From: Buttiauxella agrestis ATCC 33320
GTDB taxonomy: Bacteria; Pseudomonadota; Gammaproteobacteria; Enterobacterales; Enterobacteriaceae
Assembly (NCBI RefSeq): GCF_000735355.1
Contig: NZ_JMPI01000063.1
Location: forward strand, 107,945 to 171,944
DNA: 64,000 nucleotides
Direction: 5' to 3'
Each line of letters opens with the position of its first letter. Within the stretch, counting starts at the first letter, position 1. The notes under the pieces are model-generated. The model did no database searches, was not told where the DNA came from, and worked only from the letters and a program-made list of their open reading frames with translations. This document shows, in pieces, positions 1 to 18,877 of the stretch. The position numbers and the translations under genes were made by a program.

Positions 1-768
1 GGCTTCGGCAACATCGCCATTCCGCGCGTCGGCCAGGAAGTGATTGTCGATTTCCTCAACGGCGACCCGGACCAGCCCATCATTACCGGGCGAACCTATC
101 ACGCCGCTAACCGCTCCCCGGGCGACCTGCCGGGGACTAAAACCCAGATGGCGATACGCTCGCAGACGTATAAGGGTAATGGCTACAACGAATTAATGTT
201 TGACGACCAGACCGGCCAGGAACTGCTGTCGATGCATGCCCAGAAGGACATGAGTCGGATAGTCAATAATCGAGATGCTTTCTGGGTAGGTGAAAATCAG
301 CTGATGCATATCAAAGGCGAAAATCATTTACGAGTTGAAAGCGAAAAACGTGATTTAGTTAAAGAAGATTACTCACTCACTGTTTCACAGACTCTTCATA
401 TTAAAACTGAAGAAAATATGCTGATAGTAAATGGCAGTGAATATCACGTCAAAGCAGGCAGTAAAGTCACACTTGATGCAGGATGCGAGTTAACACTACA
501 AGCCGGTGGTAACTTTATAAAAATTGACGCCAGCGGCATCCAAACCAGTGCAATTGTAAATATGGGGATGGGTTCTCCGGGTAAGGGTACTGAATGGAAT
601 GGGCAACTCCCGGATGAACTCACGCCTTCTCAGGGAAAATTAACATTGGGAAAAAATAAGGCCGAATCGTCTGATATGACGGTTCGGCCTGAACTCGAAG
701 AAGATATATGCCTGGAATGCATGATGAATTCAATGCGTGAAGATTCGGCAATAGTGGGTGGAAACTAA
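1..768 (+). CDS. vgrG: VgrG, type VI secretion spike protein (3' part)
   Basis: The frame is open from the first base and encodes 255 residues, so the 5' part of the gene lies outside the window. The visible part starts in the gp5-like OB-fold region, with the typical VgrG signature around VGQEVIVDFLNGDPDQP and GRTYHA at residues 11–36. The needle-like repeat region follows (DDQTGQELLSMHAQKD). The last 50 residues are polar and end in a short CLECM tail; there is no extra C-terminal effector domain. VgrG trimers cap the Hcp tube and carry effectors out of the cell. The genes downstream (adaptor, immunity-like genes, Tle1-like protein, PAAR) form its cargo module. Identification as VgrG is firm; the subtype cannot be judged from a fragment. 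Confidence 0.93.
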   Translation, partial: GFGNIAIPRVGQEVIVDFLNGDPDQPIITGRTYHAANRSPGDLPGTKTQMAIRSQTYKGNGYNELMFDDQTGQELLSMHAQKDMSRIVNNRDAFWVGENQLMHIKGENHLRVESEKRDLVKEDYSLTVSQTLHIKTEENMLIVNGSEYHVKAGSKVTLDAGCELTLQAGGNFIKIDASGIQTSAIVNMGMGSPGKGTEWNGQLPDELTPSQGKLTLGKNKAESSDMTVRPELEEDICLECMMNSMREDSAIVGGN

Positions 769-772
769 CATA

Positions 773-1606
773 ATGATACTGTCTGAATTACTCATTGTCA
801 GCCATATGGCTAAAGAGGCTACTGCTTCATCGTATGCATTATTTGAAGCTGGATTAGTTGAAAATAAAGTGCTGCGAGAAATATGCGCATCTGCGAGTGA
901 CCGAATGAGATCTCTCTTTATTCACCCACAACTTGAATCATTAGTGTCCGTTGGTCCATGGCTTATAAAGATTACTGACCTGAATGACACTATTCCAGAC
1001 GTTCTGGATAAACAAGGTGCGCTGAGAGGGATCATCATTTCCAGCCTTGCGTTACCACAACTGGCAGAGCAATTATCCTGGGGATGTATCGTAAAATCTC
1101 CTGATGATAAAGGTCTGTTGTTGCGATTCTATACGCCTTATGTATTACAGCATTTATCGCAACGTAACGATTTAAATGGATATTCGGCTCTTTTTAACGG
1201 GATCGATAAATGGTTTGTTCCCAATATGGATCAACAATGGTGGCCATTATCTTTAACACCAGCTTTAAACACCGAATATGATAAGACCCACAAAACCATT
1301 GAACTCGATCAAGCTCTTTGGGAATTATTAAACGGTGACACCGACGTCAGCGCCTTGTTAAGAATCTGGATACAACAACCACAGAGTAAACATTTCCCAG
1401 CATGTATTCAGCGTGCAATGGTTCATAAGGCGCTCAATAAAGCTCAACAAGCGGGGTTATCACGACCCATTGATAAAAAAATATACGCCCTGCATTACTT
1501 GAGCGGCGGAAATAAAGAAATTCAATCATCTGATATGACTCGAGCACTCGAAAAAGTTACAGCGGGAAATATCACTCTCACCGAAGCACTGCTTCAGGAG
1601 ACTTAA
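773..1606 (+). CDS. DUF4123-type T6SS effector adaptor (Tap/TEC-like)
   Basis: A 277-residue soluble protein directly after vgrG. Its N-terminal half has the look of the DUF4123 family (SHMAKEATASSYALFEAGL at the start; GPWLIKI, a segment ending WGCIVKSPDDKGLLLRFYTPYVLQHL, then the WFVPNMDQQWWPL stretch). Proteins of this family act as chaperones or adaptors that load a specific effector onto the VgrG tip. The position between vgrG and the Tle1-like gene fits that job. I chose the ATG at 773, which has GGTGGA about ten bases upstream. A GTG at 758 would add five residues and overlap the vgrG stop. The family call rests on recognising sequence character, not on a profile search. Confidence 0.72.
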   Translation: MILSELLIVSHMAKEATASSYALFEAGLVENKVLREICASASDRMRSLFIHPQLESLVSVGPWLIKITDLNDTIPDVLDKQGALRGIIISSLALPQLAEQLSWGCIVKSPDDKGLLLRFYTPYVLQHLSQRNDLNGYSALFNGIDKWFVPNMDQQWWPLSLTPALNTEYDKTHKTIELDQALWELLNGDTDVSALLRIWIQQPQSKHFPACIQRAMVHKALNKAQQAGLSRPIDKKIYALHYLSGGNKEIQSSDMTRALEKVTAGNITLTEALLQET

Positions 1607-1608
1607 CT

Positions 1609-2112
1609 ATGAGTCTACTTTCTCGACTGGAAAAAATAGATGCTTCATTAAATCGTTTCTGGGCTCGCTGGAGTCGCTGGTTACGCAGAGGGTTAATTCT
1701 TCTGGTTGTCATCTGGGGGGGTAATCTTGCCTGGGCGGTATTTTTTGGTCCACCGACTGGAGGTGTTGCACTGATCATTCATAGTGAGATAGATCGTCCT
1801 ATTCTTGGTTTTAGCGTTAATGGTGTCGCGGGGGGAAATGCTTTTGCACATGGGGGAGGTGCTCTTACATGCTGCGGAACAATTGAAGGTGATACTGCTG
1901 AAGTTATATGGACACTGGATATAACTCATTCTCAATATTTACAAGGAATGCGACTGGAAAAACGCCTTAAAACTCTGCCATTGCCGGAAAGAAAATGGGG
2001 AGAAGACAATTTGCATGTTCATTTCCTGCCAAATGATCAGGTCAAACTGGGGTGGAGTCGTGATGCATGGTCACCCTTTGAAATACGGCCCGAAATAAAG
2101 ACTAAGAAATAA
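1609..2112 (+). CDS. DUF3304-type membrane-anchored protein, first copy (putative T6SS immunity protein)
   Basis: A 167-residue protein starting two bases after the adaptor stop, with GGAGA upstream. Residues about 27–47 form one hydrophobic helix preceded by Arg-rich sequence (ARWSRWLRR), so the rest is probably periplasmic. The body has DUF3304-like features: FSVNGVAGGNAFAHGGG, a Cys-Cys-Gly motif (LTCCG) and a Trp-rich end (VKLGWSRDAWSPFE). DUF3304 genes often sit beside T6SS lipase genes, and periplasmic immunity proteins protect against Tle-type effectors; the immunity role here is inferred from that context. It is a close paralogue of the next gene, almost identical in the middle and different in one short patch (see findings). 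Confidence 0.7.
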   Translation: MSLLSRLEKIDASLNRFWARWSRWLRRGLILLVVIWGGNLAWAVFFGPPTGGVALIIHSEIDRPILGFSVNGVAGGNAFAHGGGALTCCGTIEGDTAEVIWTLDITHSQYLQGMRLEKRLKTLPLPERKWGEDNLHVHFLPNDQVKLGWSRDAWSPFEIRPEIKTKK

Positions 2113-2455
2113 ATAAAGGACAGAGTGATATTAAGGATCTCAAAAATATGAATTTACTTTCCCGACTAGAAAAAATAGATGCGGCGCTGCATCGCTTTTG
2201 GGCACGCTGGAGCCGCTGGATGTGCAGAGGGTTAATTCTACTGATAATAATCTGGGGTCTGAACCTTGCCTGGGATGTCTTTTTTGGGCCACCGACTGGA
2301 GGTGTTGCACTGATCATTCATAGTGAGATAGATCGTCCTATTCTTGGTTTTAGCGTTAATGGTGTCGCGGGTGGAAATGCTTTTGCACATGGGGGAGGTG
2401 CTCTTACATGCTGCGGAACAATTGAAGGGGATACAGCTGAAGTTATATGGACACT
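1741..2455 (+). repeat. Tandem direct repeat covering the core of the two DUF3304 genes
   Basis: Bases 1741–1916 and 2280–2455 align without gaps at an offset of 539 and differ at about four of 176 positions by eye. A second similar block follows (1968–2090 with 2507–2629). Between them lies a divergent patch of about 51 bases (1917–1967 against 2456–2506). The 5' ends of the genes are clearly less alike at the DNA level. This is a mosaic of duplication plus local replacement. Confidence 0.9.
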
Positions 2456-2666
2456 AAGTACTACACGCACACAATATGATGCTGGTTTGCGTAAAGAAAC
2501 CCGCCACAAAACTCTGCCATTGCCAGAAAGAAAATGGGGGGAAGACAATTTGCATGTTCATTTCCTGCCAAATAATCAGGTCAAACTGGGGTGGAGTAGT
2601 GATGCGTGGTCACCCTTTGAAAAGCGGCCAGAAAACAGGAATAAAAAAGGGAATAATACTAAATGA
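2148..2666 (+). CDS. DUF3304-type membrane-anchored protein, second copy (putative T6SS immunity protein)
   Basis: A 172-residue paralogue of the preceding gene, with the same layout: a short basic N-terminus, one membrane helix at about residues 27–47, then the FSVNGVAGGN and LTCCG motifs and the WGEDNLHVHFLPNNQVKLGW segment. A weak Shine-Dalgarno (AAGGA) precedes the ATG. The stop overlaps the start of the Tle1-like gene by four bases (ATGA), which suggests translational coupling with it. This copy, rather than the first, may therefore be the cognate partner of the present effector. Function is inferred from family and neighbourhood only. Confidence 0.7.
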   Translation: MNLLSRLEKIDAALHRFWARWSRWMCRGLILLIIIWGLNLAWDVFFGPPTGGVALIIHSEIDRPILGFSVNGVAGGNAFAHGGGALTCCGTIEGDTAEVIWTLSTTRTQYDAGLRKETRHKTLPLPERKWGEDNLHVHFLPNNQVKLGWSSDAWSPFEKRPENRNKKGNNTK

Positions 2667-4501
2667 ACAAGGAACAAATGATTGCGAGTGCCAACCGGGC
2701 GCAACAGAATGAAGATAGCCATTCAAACTCTTGTGGCCGTACCTGGCACCTGGGGTTATTTTTTGATGGTGTGGAACGTAATATTGAACAAGATGCAATA
2801 GAACATCGACTCAGTAATGTTGCACGTCTTTTTCGGGCATACCCGGATAGCAGCTCAAATACGAACAATTCCTGCTTTGATAAATTTTATTTTTCAGGTC
2901 TGGGTACTCCTTTCAAAGAGGAACTTTCTGCAAAACTACATGCAGCAATGGATGTTAGTATTGATAAATTTATTGATGAAGTTAAAAGCATTCCAAAAGA
3001 TGCTATTGAGGACTCAGCCAAAGAAGTATTAAGCAAATCCTGGTATGAAATCCTGGATAATCAATTTAAGAAACTTTGTAACCCTTTCGAATGGAAAAAG
3101 GTCACTACCGCTGCAATGGGTAAGATCATGACTAAAGTTAGCATTGAGTCAACACCATGGTTACGAGATAGCAAAATTATGTCAACTATGTTTCTAACAG
3201 GTGTTGACACCAGAGTTTCATCAGCGAAAACTCGTTTTGAAAATTTCTTTAAAAAAATCAACAGTAATAGCGCACTCCCTATAAAAAACATTTCCATTTC
3301 CATTTTTGGTTTTGATCTTGGTGCTACCCTCGCGCGAAAATTCATCGATGATCTACTTAAAGATATTTGCCAAAAAGAAGTGACAAAAGATGTACCAGTA
3401 AAATATTTATATAACAAAGTTCCAGTAGATATAATATTTGCTGGTTTTTTTGATTGCTCACGCCATAGCCCTGCTAGTAGCAATAATGGGTTGGATTATT
3501 ATGTCGCTTTGCTGGGTACTCCAGGAAAAAGCGTAAGTCTTTTTATGGGAGATAAATCTATCGACCAGGATACTCCCTTACCTTCGATGGTGCGCAATGC
3601 TCTACATTTGGTTGCTGCGCATGAGCGTCGCCCATGGCGTGGAATCTATTCTTTGGGTAAGGGGAACTGGCAAGAAATATTGCTACCCGGAAGTAGTGAA
3701 GATATTGGTGGCGGATTACTGCCTGATGAACAAAAACCCAGTGCTGAATTATGCAGGGTGGCCCTGCATCAAATGTACCGTACCGCATATATGGCTGGCG
3801 TACCTTTCCCTGATTATCAAACTTTGCCCGAGCTATCAGCGACGGTTGCAAATTATTTTTATATGAACGACACCATTGAAGGCCGTTCGGCACAATACTG
3901 GGCAAAACGCTATCAGTCTATCATCGGCTACCAAACACTCAGTACTCATGCCCAAAATGCTCATCTTGACAGCTATTTTAACTGGCTTAGTCAACAGTAC
4001 TATTTGTATTGCACAGAGCTGCAAAGAATAGATGCGGAAAAAGCAGACATTATGAGCACCATAACATTATCGACAGAAGACCCCGAATTACGGAAAAAAA
4101 TAGCAGACAATCATCTTGCCAGAGAAACGCTGAAAAACAATTGGGGTTGGCTGGATGATGTTAAAGATCAGGCGCGCTGGTTTATTAATAGTGTGATGAC
4201 AAACCCTAATGAGACACGAATGCGAGTGGCCCCAAAGATTTATATTCCTGCATTCAGGCGGGCAAAAAAATTTCTGGAATACAGCGTTTGTGCTTATCAG
4301 CAAAAACCTATGCCTGCCTCAACAGATAACGCCCCAGAGGAAATTTTTACTTGGCTGGTTCACGATATTCAAAAAGTTGATCCGGCCTCCTCAATTAGTG
4401 TGGATTTCCTGGCTATTCGCTCATTCGAAGTACCTGAAGCAGAAGAAGACGAACCAGAAGCCGAGTCTCCAGCTGAAAACTCAACACCCGCCAATGCCTA
4501 A
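2663..4501 (+). CDS. Tle1/DUF2235-like T6SS phospholipase-family protein with altered catalytic residues
   Basis: A 612-residue protein with the layout of the DUF2235/Tle1 alpha/beta-hydrolase family. LFFDGVERN (residues 32–40) matches the FFDGTxNN start. SNVARLF (51–57) and FSGLGTPF (77–84) match the family N-domain. IFGFDLGA (214–221) sits at the nucleophile elbow, GFFDCS (261–266) at the acidic residue, AAHERR (318–323) is typical, and PGSSEDIGGG (342–351) sits at the usual PGxHxDIGGG. The nucleophile elbow of Tle1 lipases is GxSxG, but here position 218 is Asp. The usual His of PGxHxD is Ser345. The tail is acidic and Pro-rich. Family Tle1 enzymes cleave phospholipids of rival cells. Without the Ser and His this one may be inactive or use another chemistry. 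It follows the DUF3304 gene with a 4-base overlap and precedes PAAR. Confidence 0.75.
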   Translation: MNKEQMIASANRAQQNEDSHSNSCGRTWHLGLFFDGVERNIEQDAIEHRLSNVARLFRAYPDSSSNTNNSCFDKFYFSGLGTPFKEELSAKLHAAMDVSIDKFIDEVKSIPKDAIEDSAKEVLSKSWYEILDNQFKKLCNPFEWKKVTTAAMGKIMTKVSIESTPWLRDSKIMSTMFLTGVDTRVSSAKTRFENFFKKINSNSALPIKNISISIFGFDLGATLARKFIDDLLKDICQKEVTKDVPVKYLYNKVPVDIIFAGFFDCSRHSPASSNNGLDYYVALLGTPGKSVSLFMGDKSIDQDTPLPSMVRNALHLVAAHERRPWRGIYSLGKGNWQEILLPGSSEDIGGGLLPDEQKPSAELCRVALHQMYRTAYMAGVPFPDYQTLPELSATVANYFYMNDTIEGRSAQYWAKRYQSIIGYQTLSTHAQNAHLDSYFNWLSQQYYLYCTELQRIDAEKADIMSTITLSTEDPELRKKIADNHLARETLKNNWGWLDDVKDQARWFINSVMTNPNETRMRVAPKIYIPAFRRAKKFLEYSVCAYQQKPMPASTDNAPEEIFTWLVHDIQKVDPASSISVDFLAIRSFEVPEAEEDEPEAESPAENSTPANA

Positions 4502-4523: not shown

Positions 4524-4802
4524 ATGAGAGCAATGATGACTCAAACCTGCCCAACAACAACGGGCGGGAAAATACTTGAAGGTGTTCCGACGATCACCAT
4601 CGCAGGATTACCGGTTGCACTGATCGGAATGAAAGCTTCCTGCCAGGTTTGTAAAGGAGTCGGGGCAATCACCCCCTTGGGTCCGCATCTGCAGACATTC
4701 AACGATATCCCCGTAGCTCTTCAGGGGGATATCGTTACTTGTGCTTGTCCTAAAGGGAGTAATACTCTTTTGCCACTGGTGCCAACGGTAACGGTTTTAT
4801 AG
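4524..4802 (+). CDS. PAAR-domain T6SS spike-tip protein
   Basis: A 92-residue protein made of a single PAAR domain: repeated short beta segments with TTTGGKILEGVPTITIAGLPVALIG, CQVCKG, a GPHLQTF stretch with its His, and CACPKGSNTLLPLVPTVTV. PAAR proteins bind zinc and sharpen the VgrG trimer while carrying effectors. The start at 4524 has AGGAA eleven bases upstream; a further ATG pair at 4533/4536 could also serve. It closes the cargo module and converges on mtgA, with only nine bases between the two stops and no obvious terminator. Confidence 0.85.
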   Translation: MRAMMTQTCPTTTGGKILEGVPTITIAGLPVALIGMKASCQVCKGVGAITPLGPHLQTFNDIPVALQGDIVTCACPKGSNTLLPLVPTVTVL

Positions 4803-16393: not shown

Positions 16394-17887
16394 TTATTTG
16401 ACCGCTTTTTGCATGACCCGACTTTTAGCCGCGCCCATCTTTACGGCCCCACTAAATGGTTTACCATCAATGGCATCGTGCGTTCGCACCGCATTTGGAT
16501 GAATCCAGCGCTGAACGCGCGATGGCATATCCAGACCAATCAACAAAATAACCACAAATGTCAGGCTAAACGAAAGCGATGCCAGTGCAGTCCCTAAATC
16601 AAGACGTTGCGCAATAGTGGCCCCAATAATCGGAGCGAGTGCCCCGCCTAATGCACCAACGTTATAGGTAAAACCAAGTCCCGCAGCACGCTGTTCAGTA
16701 TCAAAGTAACCGCCAATCAACTTAGGCAAAATCCCTGAAATTCCCTGGCCTAACATCTGTTGGAAGAACAGCAGTAAACCCAGAACCCAGATATTTCCGC
16801 CGCCGATGGCGAAGACAGGAATGATCAGTAGTTGAGACACCAGCAGGCTACAGACATAGGCTTTACGTGTGCCTAACCAATCCCCCAGGAATCCTCCCAC
16901 GCAACAGCCGACAGCGGCACCAAATCCGCTAAAGAACAGAACATGCGCCACGGTTGTTGGGTTGTAGGCCAGTTCCGTTTTCAGATAGGTGGGTAGCAAC
17001 GCCTGAATCGGCCAGGAGTAGAGGAAGGCAAAGAAAACGACGACCATTAAGGTCACACCGGTCGGCCAGCGTTTGCCGCTGCTTTGCACCATGAAGCTAA
17101 TGAATATGGCGGCGCAGATTAAACCCAATACTGCGACAAGTACCGCATTGCCCAGATTACCGGCAAAGCAGAAATACAGCGCTGTTGCGACGACAATCGT
17201 CAGGCCAATGTTAATAAACCGATGTTCGCCACGGTACAAAATGTCCACCATGGTTTTGGTCGGTTTTGTATCAGCAAACTTCTCTTTCCAGTCCTCAGCC
17301 TCAGGGATGTTTTTACGCAGCCATAACGCGAAAATAATGGGCAAAATACCGATGAAAAACAGCGCGCGCCAACCCCATGCTGGAACCACAACGCTATAGA
17401 CCTGAGCGGCAATCACTGCGCCGACAGAAAAGCCAGATATCAAAAAGCCACTCGCTTTATTACGCAGATGTTTCGGCCAGCTTTCAATCACATAGGTCGC
17501 GCTGGAACCGTATTCACCCGCCATCCCCATGCCAATCAGTAGCCGGGCCAGGAACATAGTGGTAAAACCAGGTGCAAAACCACACGCTAACGTCCCGAAA
17601 GAAAACAACACGATACTGGTTATCATGGCGAGTTTGCGGCCATAACGATCGCCCATCGCGCCTAATACCAGCCCACCAAACCAGCGCGAAATAAACGCCG
17701 CTGAGATAAGACTCGCCGCCTGAACAGTCGTCAGGCCAAATTCACTTTGAATTTCAGTCAGTACTAACGCTATCAAGACAAAATCAAAACCATCCAATAA
17801 GTAGCCAATCCATGCTGCTGAAAATGCTTTCCATTGCGGCTTAGTTAAATGGCGGTACCACGGGATCTGTTGGGCAGTGTTATTCAT
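16394..17887 (-). CDS. nanT: Sialic acid:H+ symporter NanT
   Basis: A 497-residue major facilitator transporter; E. coli NanT has 496. The N-terminus [22 protein letters not shown] and the family loop [12 protein letters not shown] between helices 2 and 3 are typical, and about 14 hydrophobic segments can be drawn, as in NanT. It imports N-acetylneuraminate across the inner membrane. It lies 90 bases downstream of nanA in the same direction. The gene ends at the gltD terminator, so nanE, nanK and yhcH, which follow nanT in E. coli, are not at this locus. Confidence 0.94.
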
Positions 17888-17977
17888 AAAGCACTCCCGG
17901 TGCGAGTTCGCAAAAACCCGCCCTCTGGTTAGGTCTGATTAGGTATGGTCTACGGCACCACGGTTTGCATATGCCAT

Positions 17978-18877
17978 TCAGAGCGCGGCGCGTTCTTTCT
18001 GAAGCTGCGCCGCGAGTGCTTTAAGTTCAGGCAGATATTGCTCCTCAACCGATGCAAAAGGTTTGCGACAAAGCGGCACTGCCAGCACATCCATATAATG
18101 CAGAATTGTTTTCAGCCCGCGGAAAACACCGACTTTAATCAGCAAATCAATGACCTTGTTGCATTCACTTTGAAGCTGTCTGGCTCGTTGAACATCTCCT
18201 TCCTGTACGGCATTTTTAATTGCCATATATCGCCAGCCCATTACGTTGTAAGTGCTGCCAATACCGCCGTCAGCCCCTGCCAACAGACCAGAAGCGAAGA
18301 TCTCGTCATAACCGTTATAGAGCACAAGATCCGGATGAGCACGACGGATCTGCTCCATCTGATAGAGATCACCCGAGGTTTGCTTTAACGCCCCGACGCC
18401 CGGCAAGCTGATTAAGGTATCAATCTGTTCAAGCGAGAGCTTCACACCGCTAAGAGCCGGAATGTTGTAAACCACCATCGGCAACCCACCAGACGAATCA
18501 ATAACTGCGCGATAGTGGTCACAGTGTTCGTTGAAGCTGAACGGATAGTAAAACGGCGTGACCGCTGAAACGGCATCGAATCCATAACGGTGTGCTGCAC
18601 TCGCCAGAGTCTGACTCTCATGGGTGCTGATACCACCCACATGTGCAATTAATGTCACCTTGCCTTTCGCTTCTTCGGCGACAATTTCCAGCACTTGCTC
18701 ACGTTCTTGCGTGGTCTGCAAAAATGCTTCGCCAGTGGAACCACCGACATAAAGGCCATCAATGCCCTGCTCAATATTGAAACGAACCAGACGGCGCAAA
18801 CTGTCGGTGTCGATCTGTTGTTGCGGGTTAAACGGAGTAAGCAATGCGGGCATCACACCGCGAAGATTCTGTGCCAT
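17978..18877 (-). CDS. nanA: N-acetylneuraminate lyase
   Basis: A 299-residue TIM-barrel lyase of the DHDPS/NAL family; E. coli NanA has 297. Visible hallmarks are [10 protein letters not shown] (carboxylate binding, near residue 46), [10 protein letters not shown] with the catalytic Tyr near 136, and GALKQTSGD with the Schiff-base Lys near 164. It splits sialic acid into N-acetylmannosamine and pyruvate. Three NanR half-operators lie just upstream, so it is probably induced by sialic acid together with nanT. Confidence 0.95.

What the first reader, a model, noticed from the sequence alone, without database searches (positions are those of the whole stretch)
2663..4501. Tle1-like T6SS protein without the catalytic Ser and His
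The protein keeps the DUF2235 framework (FFDG start, GxxxG elbow, FFD, HERR, DIGGG), but the nucleophile elbow GxSxG is GFDLG (Asp218) and the usual PGxHxD is PGSSED (Ser345). Seen directly: the substitutions. Known: Tle1 uses a Ser–Asp–His triad. Inference: a catalytically dead or re-purposed effector, perhaps with a different substrate or a structural role. An intact frame and conserved neighbours argue it is not simply decaying.
Basis: partly seen in the sequence, partly recalled or inferred. Interest (0 to 1): 0.78.

Follow-up and report, generated by a model that had tools for sequence, protein, structure and literature searches.

The report
Bacterial toxin with rebuilt active site
This bacterium, likely a Buttiauxella, carries an intact gene for a relative of the bacteria-killing Tle1 lipases in which, as in all 280 sequences of its branch that were compared, an aspartate stands where those lipases have their catalytic serine and the catalytic histidine is gone; the protein likely still poisons rival bacteria, by a predicted rebuilt active site that remains to be tested.

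The parts
1..768 (+). C-terminal part of VgrG (spike protein); the gene begins upstream of the window
   Evidence: Pfam Gp5_trimer_C over cut-off; NCBIfam TIGR03361/TIGR01646 E 2e-32/2e-21 but below their cut-offs, as expected for a cut piece; full ORF of 685 codons in L092 at 16656-18710, which ends at window position 765
758..1606 (+). DUF4123 adaptor (effector loading), 282 aa
   Evidence: PF13503 3.5e-16
1609..2112 (+). DUF3304 (Tli1a-like) immunity protein, copy 1, 167 aa, N-terminal hydrophobic helix about 29-47
   Evidence: PF11745 6.2e-6, over cut-off; NF053804 Tli1a family far below cut-off; hydropathy 2.08
2148..2666 (+). DUF3304 (Tli1a-like) immunity protein, copy 2, 172 aa, 85% identical to copy 1
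   Evidence: PF11745 2.8e-6, over cut-off; identity; hydropathy 2.05
2663..4501 (+). Asp-type Tle1/DUF2235 effector, 612 aa
3314..3316 (+). codon GAT, Asp218, at the predicted nucleophile elbow (Ser in classical Tle1)
   Evidence: strand 207-217, Asp218, helix 219-235 in the model; 280/280 Asp
3452..3454 (+). codon GAT, Asp264, triad acid after strand 253-263, kept
   Evidence: 280/280 Asp; Asp in 21/21 Ser-type
3620..3622 (+). codon CAT, His320, after strand 312-318, candidate replacement base
   Evidence: 278/280 His; Asp in 16 and His in 2 of 21 Ser-type
3695..3697 (+). codon AGT, Ser345, where classical Tle1 has the catalytic His
   Evidence: Ser 186, Ala 93, Thr 1 of 280; His in 21/21 Ser-type
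3962..3964 (+). codon CAT, His434, in the C-terminal helical domain, second candidate base
   Evidence: 275/280 His
4524..4802 (+). PAAR spike-tip protein, 92 aa
   Evidence: PF05488 4.4e-14

Best explanation
This gene encodes a type VI secretion effector-type protein of a Tle1-derived branch that has Asp at the nucleophile position in all 280 branch sequences compared and no His at the catalytic His position, and it likely kills competing bacteria as a working envelope hydrolase with a predicted rebuilt active site. Proposed steps. (1) Delivery (inferred from the operon): the effector is loaded with the DUF4123 adaptor on VgrG/PAAR and fired into a neighbour's periplasm. (2) Chemistry (inferred): Asp218 acts as nucleophile or general base, Asp264 keeps its acid role, and His320 from the loop after strand 7, or His434 from the helical domain, takes over from the lost His; position 345 is kept small (Ser/Ala) to leave room. 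(3) Target (inferred): an ester or related bond of membrane lipids or another envelope molecule. (4) Self-protection (inferred from the membrane-anchored look of the DUF3304 copies): the two immunity proteins guard the producer from the periplasmic side. Shown here: the substitutions, their conservation, the separate branch, the operon and purifying selection; the fold is predicted with good confidence.
Against: No activity was measured by any search, and no model coordinates were available, so the His320-Asp218 distance is unmeasured. Glu321, Glu338 and Asp347 are also conserved in Ser-type proteins (19, 20 and 21 of 21), so their conservation may be inherited fold need; the branch-specific points are Asp218, the small 345 and His320. 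TleB also has a His at the 320 position yet H347A abolished lecithin hydrolysis, so His320 is no automatic substitute. His320 is Gln or Asn in 2 of 280. A superfamily review calls the His after strand 8 totally conserved, so its loss usually argues against catalysis. TleV1 was not aligned here (not fetched): its place in this branch rests on the printed motif and layout. Foldseek's whole-chain TM-scores are modest (0.46-0.48 to 9j3f and 4o5p, 0.25-0.28 to 6ski and 6sjl). The window's own genome showed no TssB, TssC or TssK, so this copy may not be deliverable there.
Confidence: 0.5

Rival explanations
1. Pseudoenzyme toxin: the hydrolase fold is a binding scaffold and killing comes from membrane insertion or permeabilisation without bond cleavage.
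For: Both the Ser and the His of the triad are gone; Tle1KP S248A and H375A still inhibited growth; a review lists alpha/beta-hydrolase families without catalytic residues that are judged non-enzymatic.
Against: Asp218 and Asp264 are absolutely conserved at strand ends and those loops have low entropy, more than a scaffold would seem to need.
Confidence: 0.22
2. Histidine-free carboxylate pair: Asp218 and Asp264, freed of the His between them, activate water or bind a metal ion, like an aspartic hydrolase or a two-carboxylate glycosidase.
For: Both Asp residues are 280/280 and residue 345 is always small; in Tle1KP only the Asp mutant had an impaired effect.
Against: His320 and His434 are nearly invariant, which this reading does not need; no metal or distance data.
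Confidence: 0.2
3. Non-toxic structural or decoy cargo: the branch only plugs or shapes the spike, or keeps immunity genes alive.
For: The window's genome has no detected TssB, TssC or TssK yet keeps the island intact.
Against: Immunity-like genes upstream in all 39 loci where that DNA is visible and published killing by TleV1 of the same motif and layout.
Confidence: 0.05

Closest known systems
TleV1-4 with TliV1a/TliV1b, V. cholerae Aux 5 (PMC6691524, 2019; passages read)
   Same: GXDLG in place of GXSXG (window: GFDLG); DUF2235; two DUF3304 genes upstream of the effector; vgrG and a DUF4123 gene in the cluster
   Different: No ORF directly downstream of TleV, whereas a PAAR gene follows here; a word search of the main text found no histidine, triad, serine or aspart (its supplementary alignments were not seen); sequences not compared here
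Classical Tle1: P. aeruginosa Tle1 (4o5p), EAEC Tle1 (6sjl/6ski), Xanthomonas TleB (9j3f, PMC12421835, passages read)
   Same: Fold, FFDG, GxFD Asp, PGxxxD and GGG frame; DUF4123/VgrG partners and DUF3304 immunity in P. aeruginosa (PMC13133936, passages)
   Different: They have Ser and His; TleB S240A and H347A failed to hydrolyse lecithin. Here Asp and Ser.
Epoxide hydrolases and other Asp-nucleophile alpha/beta hydrolases (PMC11878206, section 2.7 read)
   Same: Asp at the nucleophile elbow, Asp/Glu acid
   Different: Described as D-D/E-H with the His reaching in after strand 8; this branch has no His there
Tle1KP, K. pneumoniae HS11286 (PMC5649205, one section and passages read)
   Same: DUF2235 effector with a tandem array of four immunity genes; the triad Asp was the only one of three residues whose mutation impaired the effect
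   Different: Reported as S248-D297-H375, that is, Ser-type

Membership tests
Tle1 phospholipases (PF09994) | Profile score over the curated cut-off | tested here: met
   30.6 bits, cut-off 27; but the whole-genome searches with the same family did not report this gene
Tle1 phospholipases (PF09994) | Tle1 alpha/beta-hydrolase fold | tested here: met
Tle1 phospholipases (PF09994) | GxSxG nucleophile motif | tested here: not met
   GFDLG; Asp in 280/280 of the branch
Tle1 phospholipases (PF09994) | Ser-Asp-His triad with His after strand 8 | tested here: not met
   Asp218-Asp264-Ser345
Tle1 phospholipases (PF09994) | Phospholipase A1/A2 activity | not testable with these tools
   needs purified protein
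TleV1-type (GXDLG) effectors | GXDLG elbow motif | tested here: met
   GFDLG at 216-220; motif named in PMC6691524
TleV1-type (GXDLG) effectors | Two DUF3304 immunity genes upstream of the effector | tested here: met
TleV1-type (GXDLG) effectors | Sequence relation to TleV1 itself | not tested
   V. cholerae effector deliberately not fetched
TleV1-type (GXDLG) effectors | Kills in the periplasm, neutralised by its DUF3304 partner | not testable with these tools
   shown in print for TleV1/TliV1a only
Epoxide hydrolase-type Asp nucleophile enzymes | D-D/E-H triad with His after strand 8 | tested here: not met
   residue 345 is never His in 280; definition from PMC11878206

The most novel reading that the evidence does not exclude
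A whole branch of type VI toxins has turned a Ser-His-Asp alpha/beta-hydrolase into a histidine-free Asp-Asp enzyme: a new catalytic plan for one of the commonest enzyme folds, in which the His called totally conserved across the superfamily has been dropped and the enzyme still kills.
Probability: 0.2. Interest if true: 0.85.

Novelty: new variant of a known kind. Interest (0 to 1): 0.6.

Why it matters
Some database records name these proteins 'phospholipase effector Tle1 domain-containing protein' (names seen), yet both residues that make Tle1 a phospholipase are replaced in every branch member compared. Either the activity is different, or the alpha/beta-hydrolase fold can work without its most conserved residue, or hydrolase-fold toxins can kill without catalysis. 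A few point variants in a laboratory E. coli would decide between these.

Tried and rejected
Rejected: simple decay (pN/pS 0.24; separate 100/99 branch). Rejected: Glu346 as the new catalytic residue; it was invariant in the first 121 sequences but is Glu in only 240 of 280. Rejected: ordinary epoxide-hydrolase triad (no His after strand 8). Rejected: the second PF09994 gene of the genome (L001) as a paralogue of this kind; it is a 440-codon DUF2235 protein with GFSHG and PGIHHDVGG beside an ABC-transporter-like gene.

Led nowhere: first AF2 job with 28 close relatives (pLDDT 51.3); the search for related loci with the single protein (nothing); paper search for S197/H310 (none). 'TleV1' is held by 3 papers, of which I read passages of one and only the listing of two. 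In the GXDLG/GxDxG search only PMC6691524 of the 28 listed holds GXDLG and none holds GxDxG. The statement that I found no mention of the His loss rests on the eight paper searches, on the word search and on passages or sections of nine papers; supplements were not available. VIA-align listed no epoxide hydrolase or dehalogenase among the 50 rows shown; that excludes nothing.

Limits: model coordinates are not given by the tools, so no pocket distances; parts of the model around residues 91-160 and 271-300 have low confidence. Protein lists show only the best 120 of 475 and 120 of 444 matches, so they cannot contain the Ser-type border; the profile searches were used for that, and those score at most four first-look candidates a genome. 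The loci came from patterns that include PG[CS][SA]ED, a bias towards this branch at 344-347. The 280 rows include some proteins twice (a P id and its locus). A2 has 123 of the 124 representatives kept at under 85% identity and at least 540 aa (P0238 dropped). Loci L007 and L035 (frame broken) and L042, L043 (cut by the contig end) were left out of the residue counts. The loop set was chosen after seeing the data. Ser-type frames were picked by a GxSxGA motif: 35 of the 45 loci L045-L089 gave one, and one search used the 21 of L069-L089, which is all of those 21 loci; the 14 others, from strong PF09994 matches of shorter DUF2235 proteins, were not used. The 21 Ser-type rows of the tree are a different set: 13 of those plus 8; L111 there is called Ser-type from its PGVHSD alone, because its elbow was not in the frame read. 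The tree is rooted at the midpoint for drawing only. The 30 Asp-type rows and the 29 were hand-picked representatives.

Full report
What is there. The ORF at 2663-4501 (+) is intact and 612 aa long. It sits in a compact island: VgrG (C-terminal part at 1-768), DUF4123 adaptor (758-1606), two DUF3304 proteins (1609-2112, 2148-2666), the effector, and a PAAR protein (4524-4802). The genus is judged from the source name Buttiauxella on the nearest named proteins. The effector is accessory: 2 of 12 genomes of the genus, the window's own included, have it.

The substitutions. Profile alignment with solved Tle1 structures (9j3f E 4e-28, 4o5p 1.6e-14, 6sjl 5e-4) puts Asp218 on the catalytic Ser, Asp264 on the triad Asp and Ser345 on the catalytic His. 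In TleB these are Ser240, Asp280 and His347, and the S240A and H347A variants failed to hydrolyse lecithin (PMC12421835, passages). The EAEC numbering S197/D245/H310 is recalled; counting agrees with it.

A conserved branch, not decay. In 280 sequences (window, 240 proteins from two searches, 39 of 43 loci): Asp218 280, Asp264 280, His315 280, Glu321 280, Glu338 280, Asp347 279, His320 278; position 345 Ser 186, Ala 93, Thr 1; position 346 Glu only 240. In 21 Ser-type proteins from Enterobacterales loci (frames picked by a GxSxGA motif), position 345 is His in 21 and position 320 is Asp in 16 and His in 2; Glu321, Glu338 and Asp347 are shared (19, 20 and 21 of 21), so the branch-specific points are 218, 345 and 320. 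A tree of 29 Asp-type and 21 Ser-type rows, built without the diagnostic columns, needs one change and sets the Asp type on one side of a 100/99 branch of length 1.56; it is rooted at the midpoint only. Named hosts of the loci include Enterobacterales, Aeromonas, Halomonas, Marinobacter, Pseudomonas and Stutzerimonas; one record titled Paceibacterota falls among the Enterobacterales rows and may be a mis-binned contig.

There is a gap between the types. In 295 genomes of the family, 64 match at E 1e-8 and 12 of them (own included) match strongly (517-794 bits); below these come a fragment in G729 (158 bits, stops inside) and then matches of 87.6 bits or less, among them a fragment in G776. Of the loci read, 11 of 11 strong ones are GxDxG with PGxxED, and 7 of 7 weak ones are GFSRGA with PGMHSD; the other weak matches were not read. 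In 321 genomes spread over the class, 11 match and only the window's own genome strongly; of the 10 others eight show GFSRGA, L111's elbow was not in the frame read, and L107 has lost the elbow segment. Three strong genomes (G728, G798, G625) also carry a short N-terminal effector fragment 600-800 bases upstream of the effector; the TleV1 paper reports a vestigial effector piece between the two immunity genes.

Constraint. Against G200 the effector is 70% identical with pN/pS 0.24 (dS saturated at 2.87, so rough). The DUF3304 genes give 0.23 and 0.16, DUF4123 0.37, PAAR 0.23, VgrG 0.27 and the mtgA-like gene 0.10. The four strand-end loops have mean entropy 0.70 bits against 1.85 in the rest of the catalytic domain and 2.27 in the C-terminal domain; 9 of 31 invariant columns fall in these 32 positions, 1.6 expected (the loop set was chosen after seeing the data).

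It looks like a toxin locus. Of 44 loci (43 plus the window) 39 show more than 700 bases upstream of the effector, and all 39 carry immunity-like genes there: one copy in 19, two in 10, three in 6, four in 3, five in 1. Assignment was by iterated profiles from the window's own genes; of six such genes from distant loci scanned against Pfam, five are DUF3304 over the cut-off and one (L020) has no match. Of 80 immunity-like genes 71 have a strongly hydrophobic N-terminal helix, with basic residues ahead of it in the window's two, which suggests a periplasmic DUF3304 domain. P. aeruginosa Tli1a, also DUF3304, is an outer-membrane lipoprotein placed to neutralise periplasmic Tle1 (PMC13133936, passages).

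Published killing. V. cholerae TleV1 is said to lack GXSXG 'but contain a GXDLG motif', with two DUF3304 genes upstream of the effector; it is most toxic in the E. coli periplasm, kills by almost five orders of magnitude in a T6SS-dependent way with propidium-positive targets, and TliV1a but not TliV1b protects (PMC6691524, passages). A word search of its main text finds no 'histidine', 'triad', 'serine' or 'aspart', and the passages seen hold no lipase assay or point mutant. I did not fetch TleV1, so its place in this branch rests on the printed motif and layout. Separately, in Tle1KP only D297A, not S248A or H375A, had an impaired effect (PMC5649205, section read), which that paper itself contrasts with P. 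aeruginosa Tle1, where all three mattered.

How it most likely works. The simplest reading is a working envelope toxin whose triad was rebuilt around two aspartates, with His320 or His434 as candidate base; besides His315, which lies within strand 312-318 and is also in 19 of 21 Ser-type proteins, these are the histidines conserved in over 95% of the branch (His369 is His in 253 of 280). Against it: TleB has a His at the 320 place and still needs His347. The main rivals are a histidine-free carboxylate pair and a non-enzymatic toxin.

A caveat on this strain. The window's genome gave no match to TssC, TssK or TssB, although 10 of 12 genomes of the genus have TssC and eight Hcp-like stretches are present. 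The island may be an orphan here, unless the sheath genes are missing from the assembly or withheld from the copy searched.

Noticed in passing
whole genome G000 (93 contigs): No TssB, TssC or TssK match although an intact vgrG-effector-PAAR island and eight Hcp-like stretches are present; 10 of 12 genomes of the genus have TssC.
   Followed up: partly
L107 (G481:C4, minus strand): A Tle1-like frame of 593 codons in which the nucleophile-elbow segment is absent while PGVHS is kept; possibly a dead Tle1. Described only.
   Followed up: no
L001 (G000:C6:113184-114083): Second DUF2235 gene of the genome, 440 codons, with GFSHG and PGIHHDVGG intact, next to an ABC-transporter-like ATPase gene.
   Followed up: partly
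L131 (G729) and G776:C5:421767-422279: Pieces of the Asp-type effector with stops in frame, suggesting loss of the gene in some Enterobacteriaceae.
   Followed up: no
G798:C1:2732938-2733081, G625:C1:2811158-2811346, G728:C1:2710440-2710571: Short N-terminal effector fragments 600-800 bases upstream of the full effector gene, reminiscent of the vestigial tleV piece reported between the two immunity genes of V. cholerae Aux 5.
   Followed up: no
L011, L013, L018, L027: Four to five DUF3304-like immunity genes ahead of one effector.
   Followed up: partly
L015 (contig titled Candidatus Paceibacterota MAG): An Asp-type effector that groups with Enterobacterales rows in the tree, so the contig is probably mis-binned.
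   Followed up: no
G112 and G188 (same family): Genomes that carry both Ser-type and Asp-type effectors; the Asp-type ones read have Aeromonas-like GADLG and PGISEDVTGG motifs.
   Followed up: no
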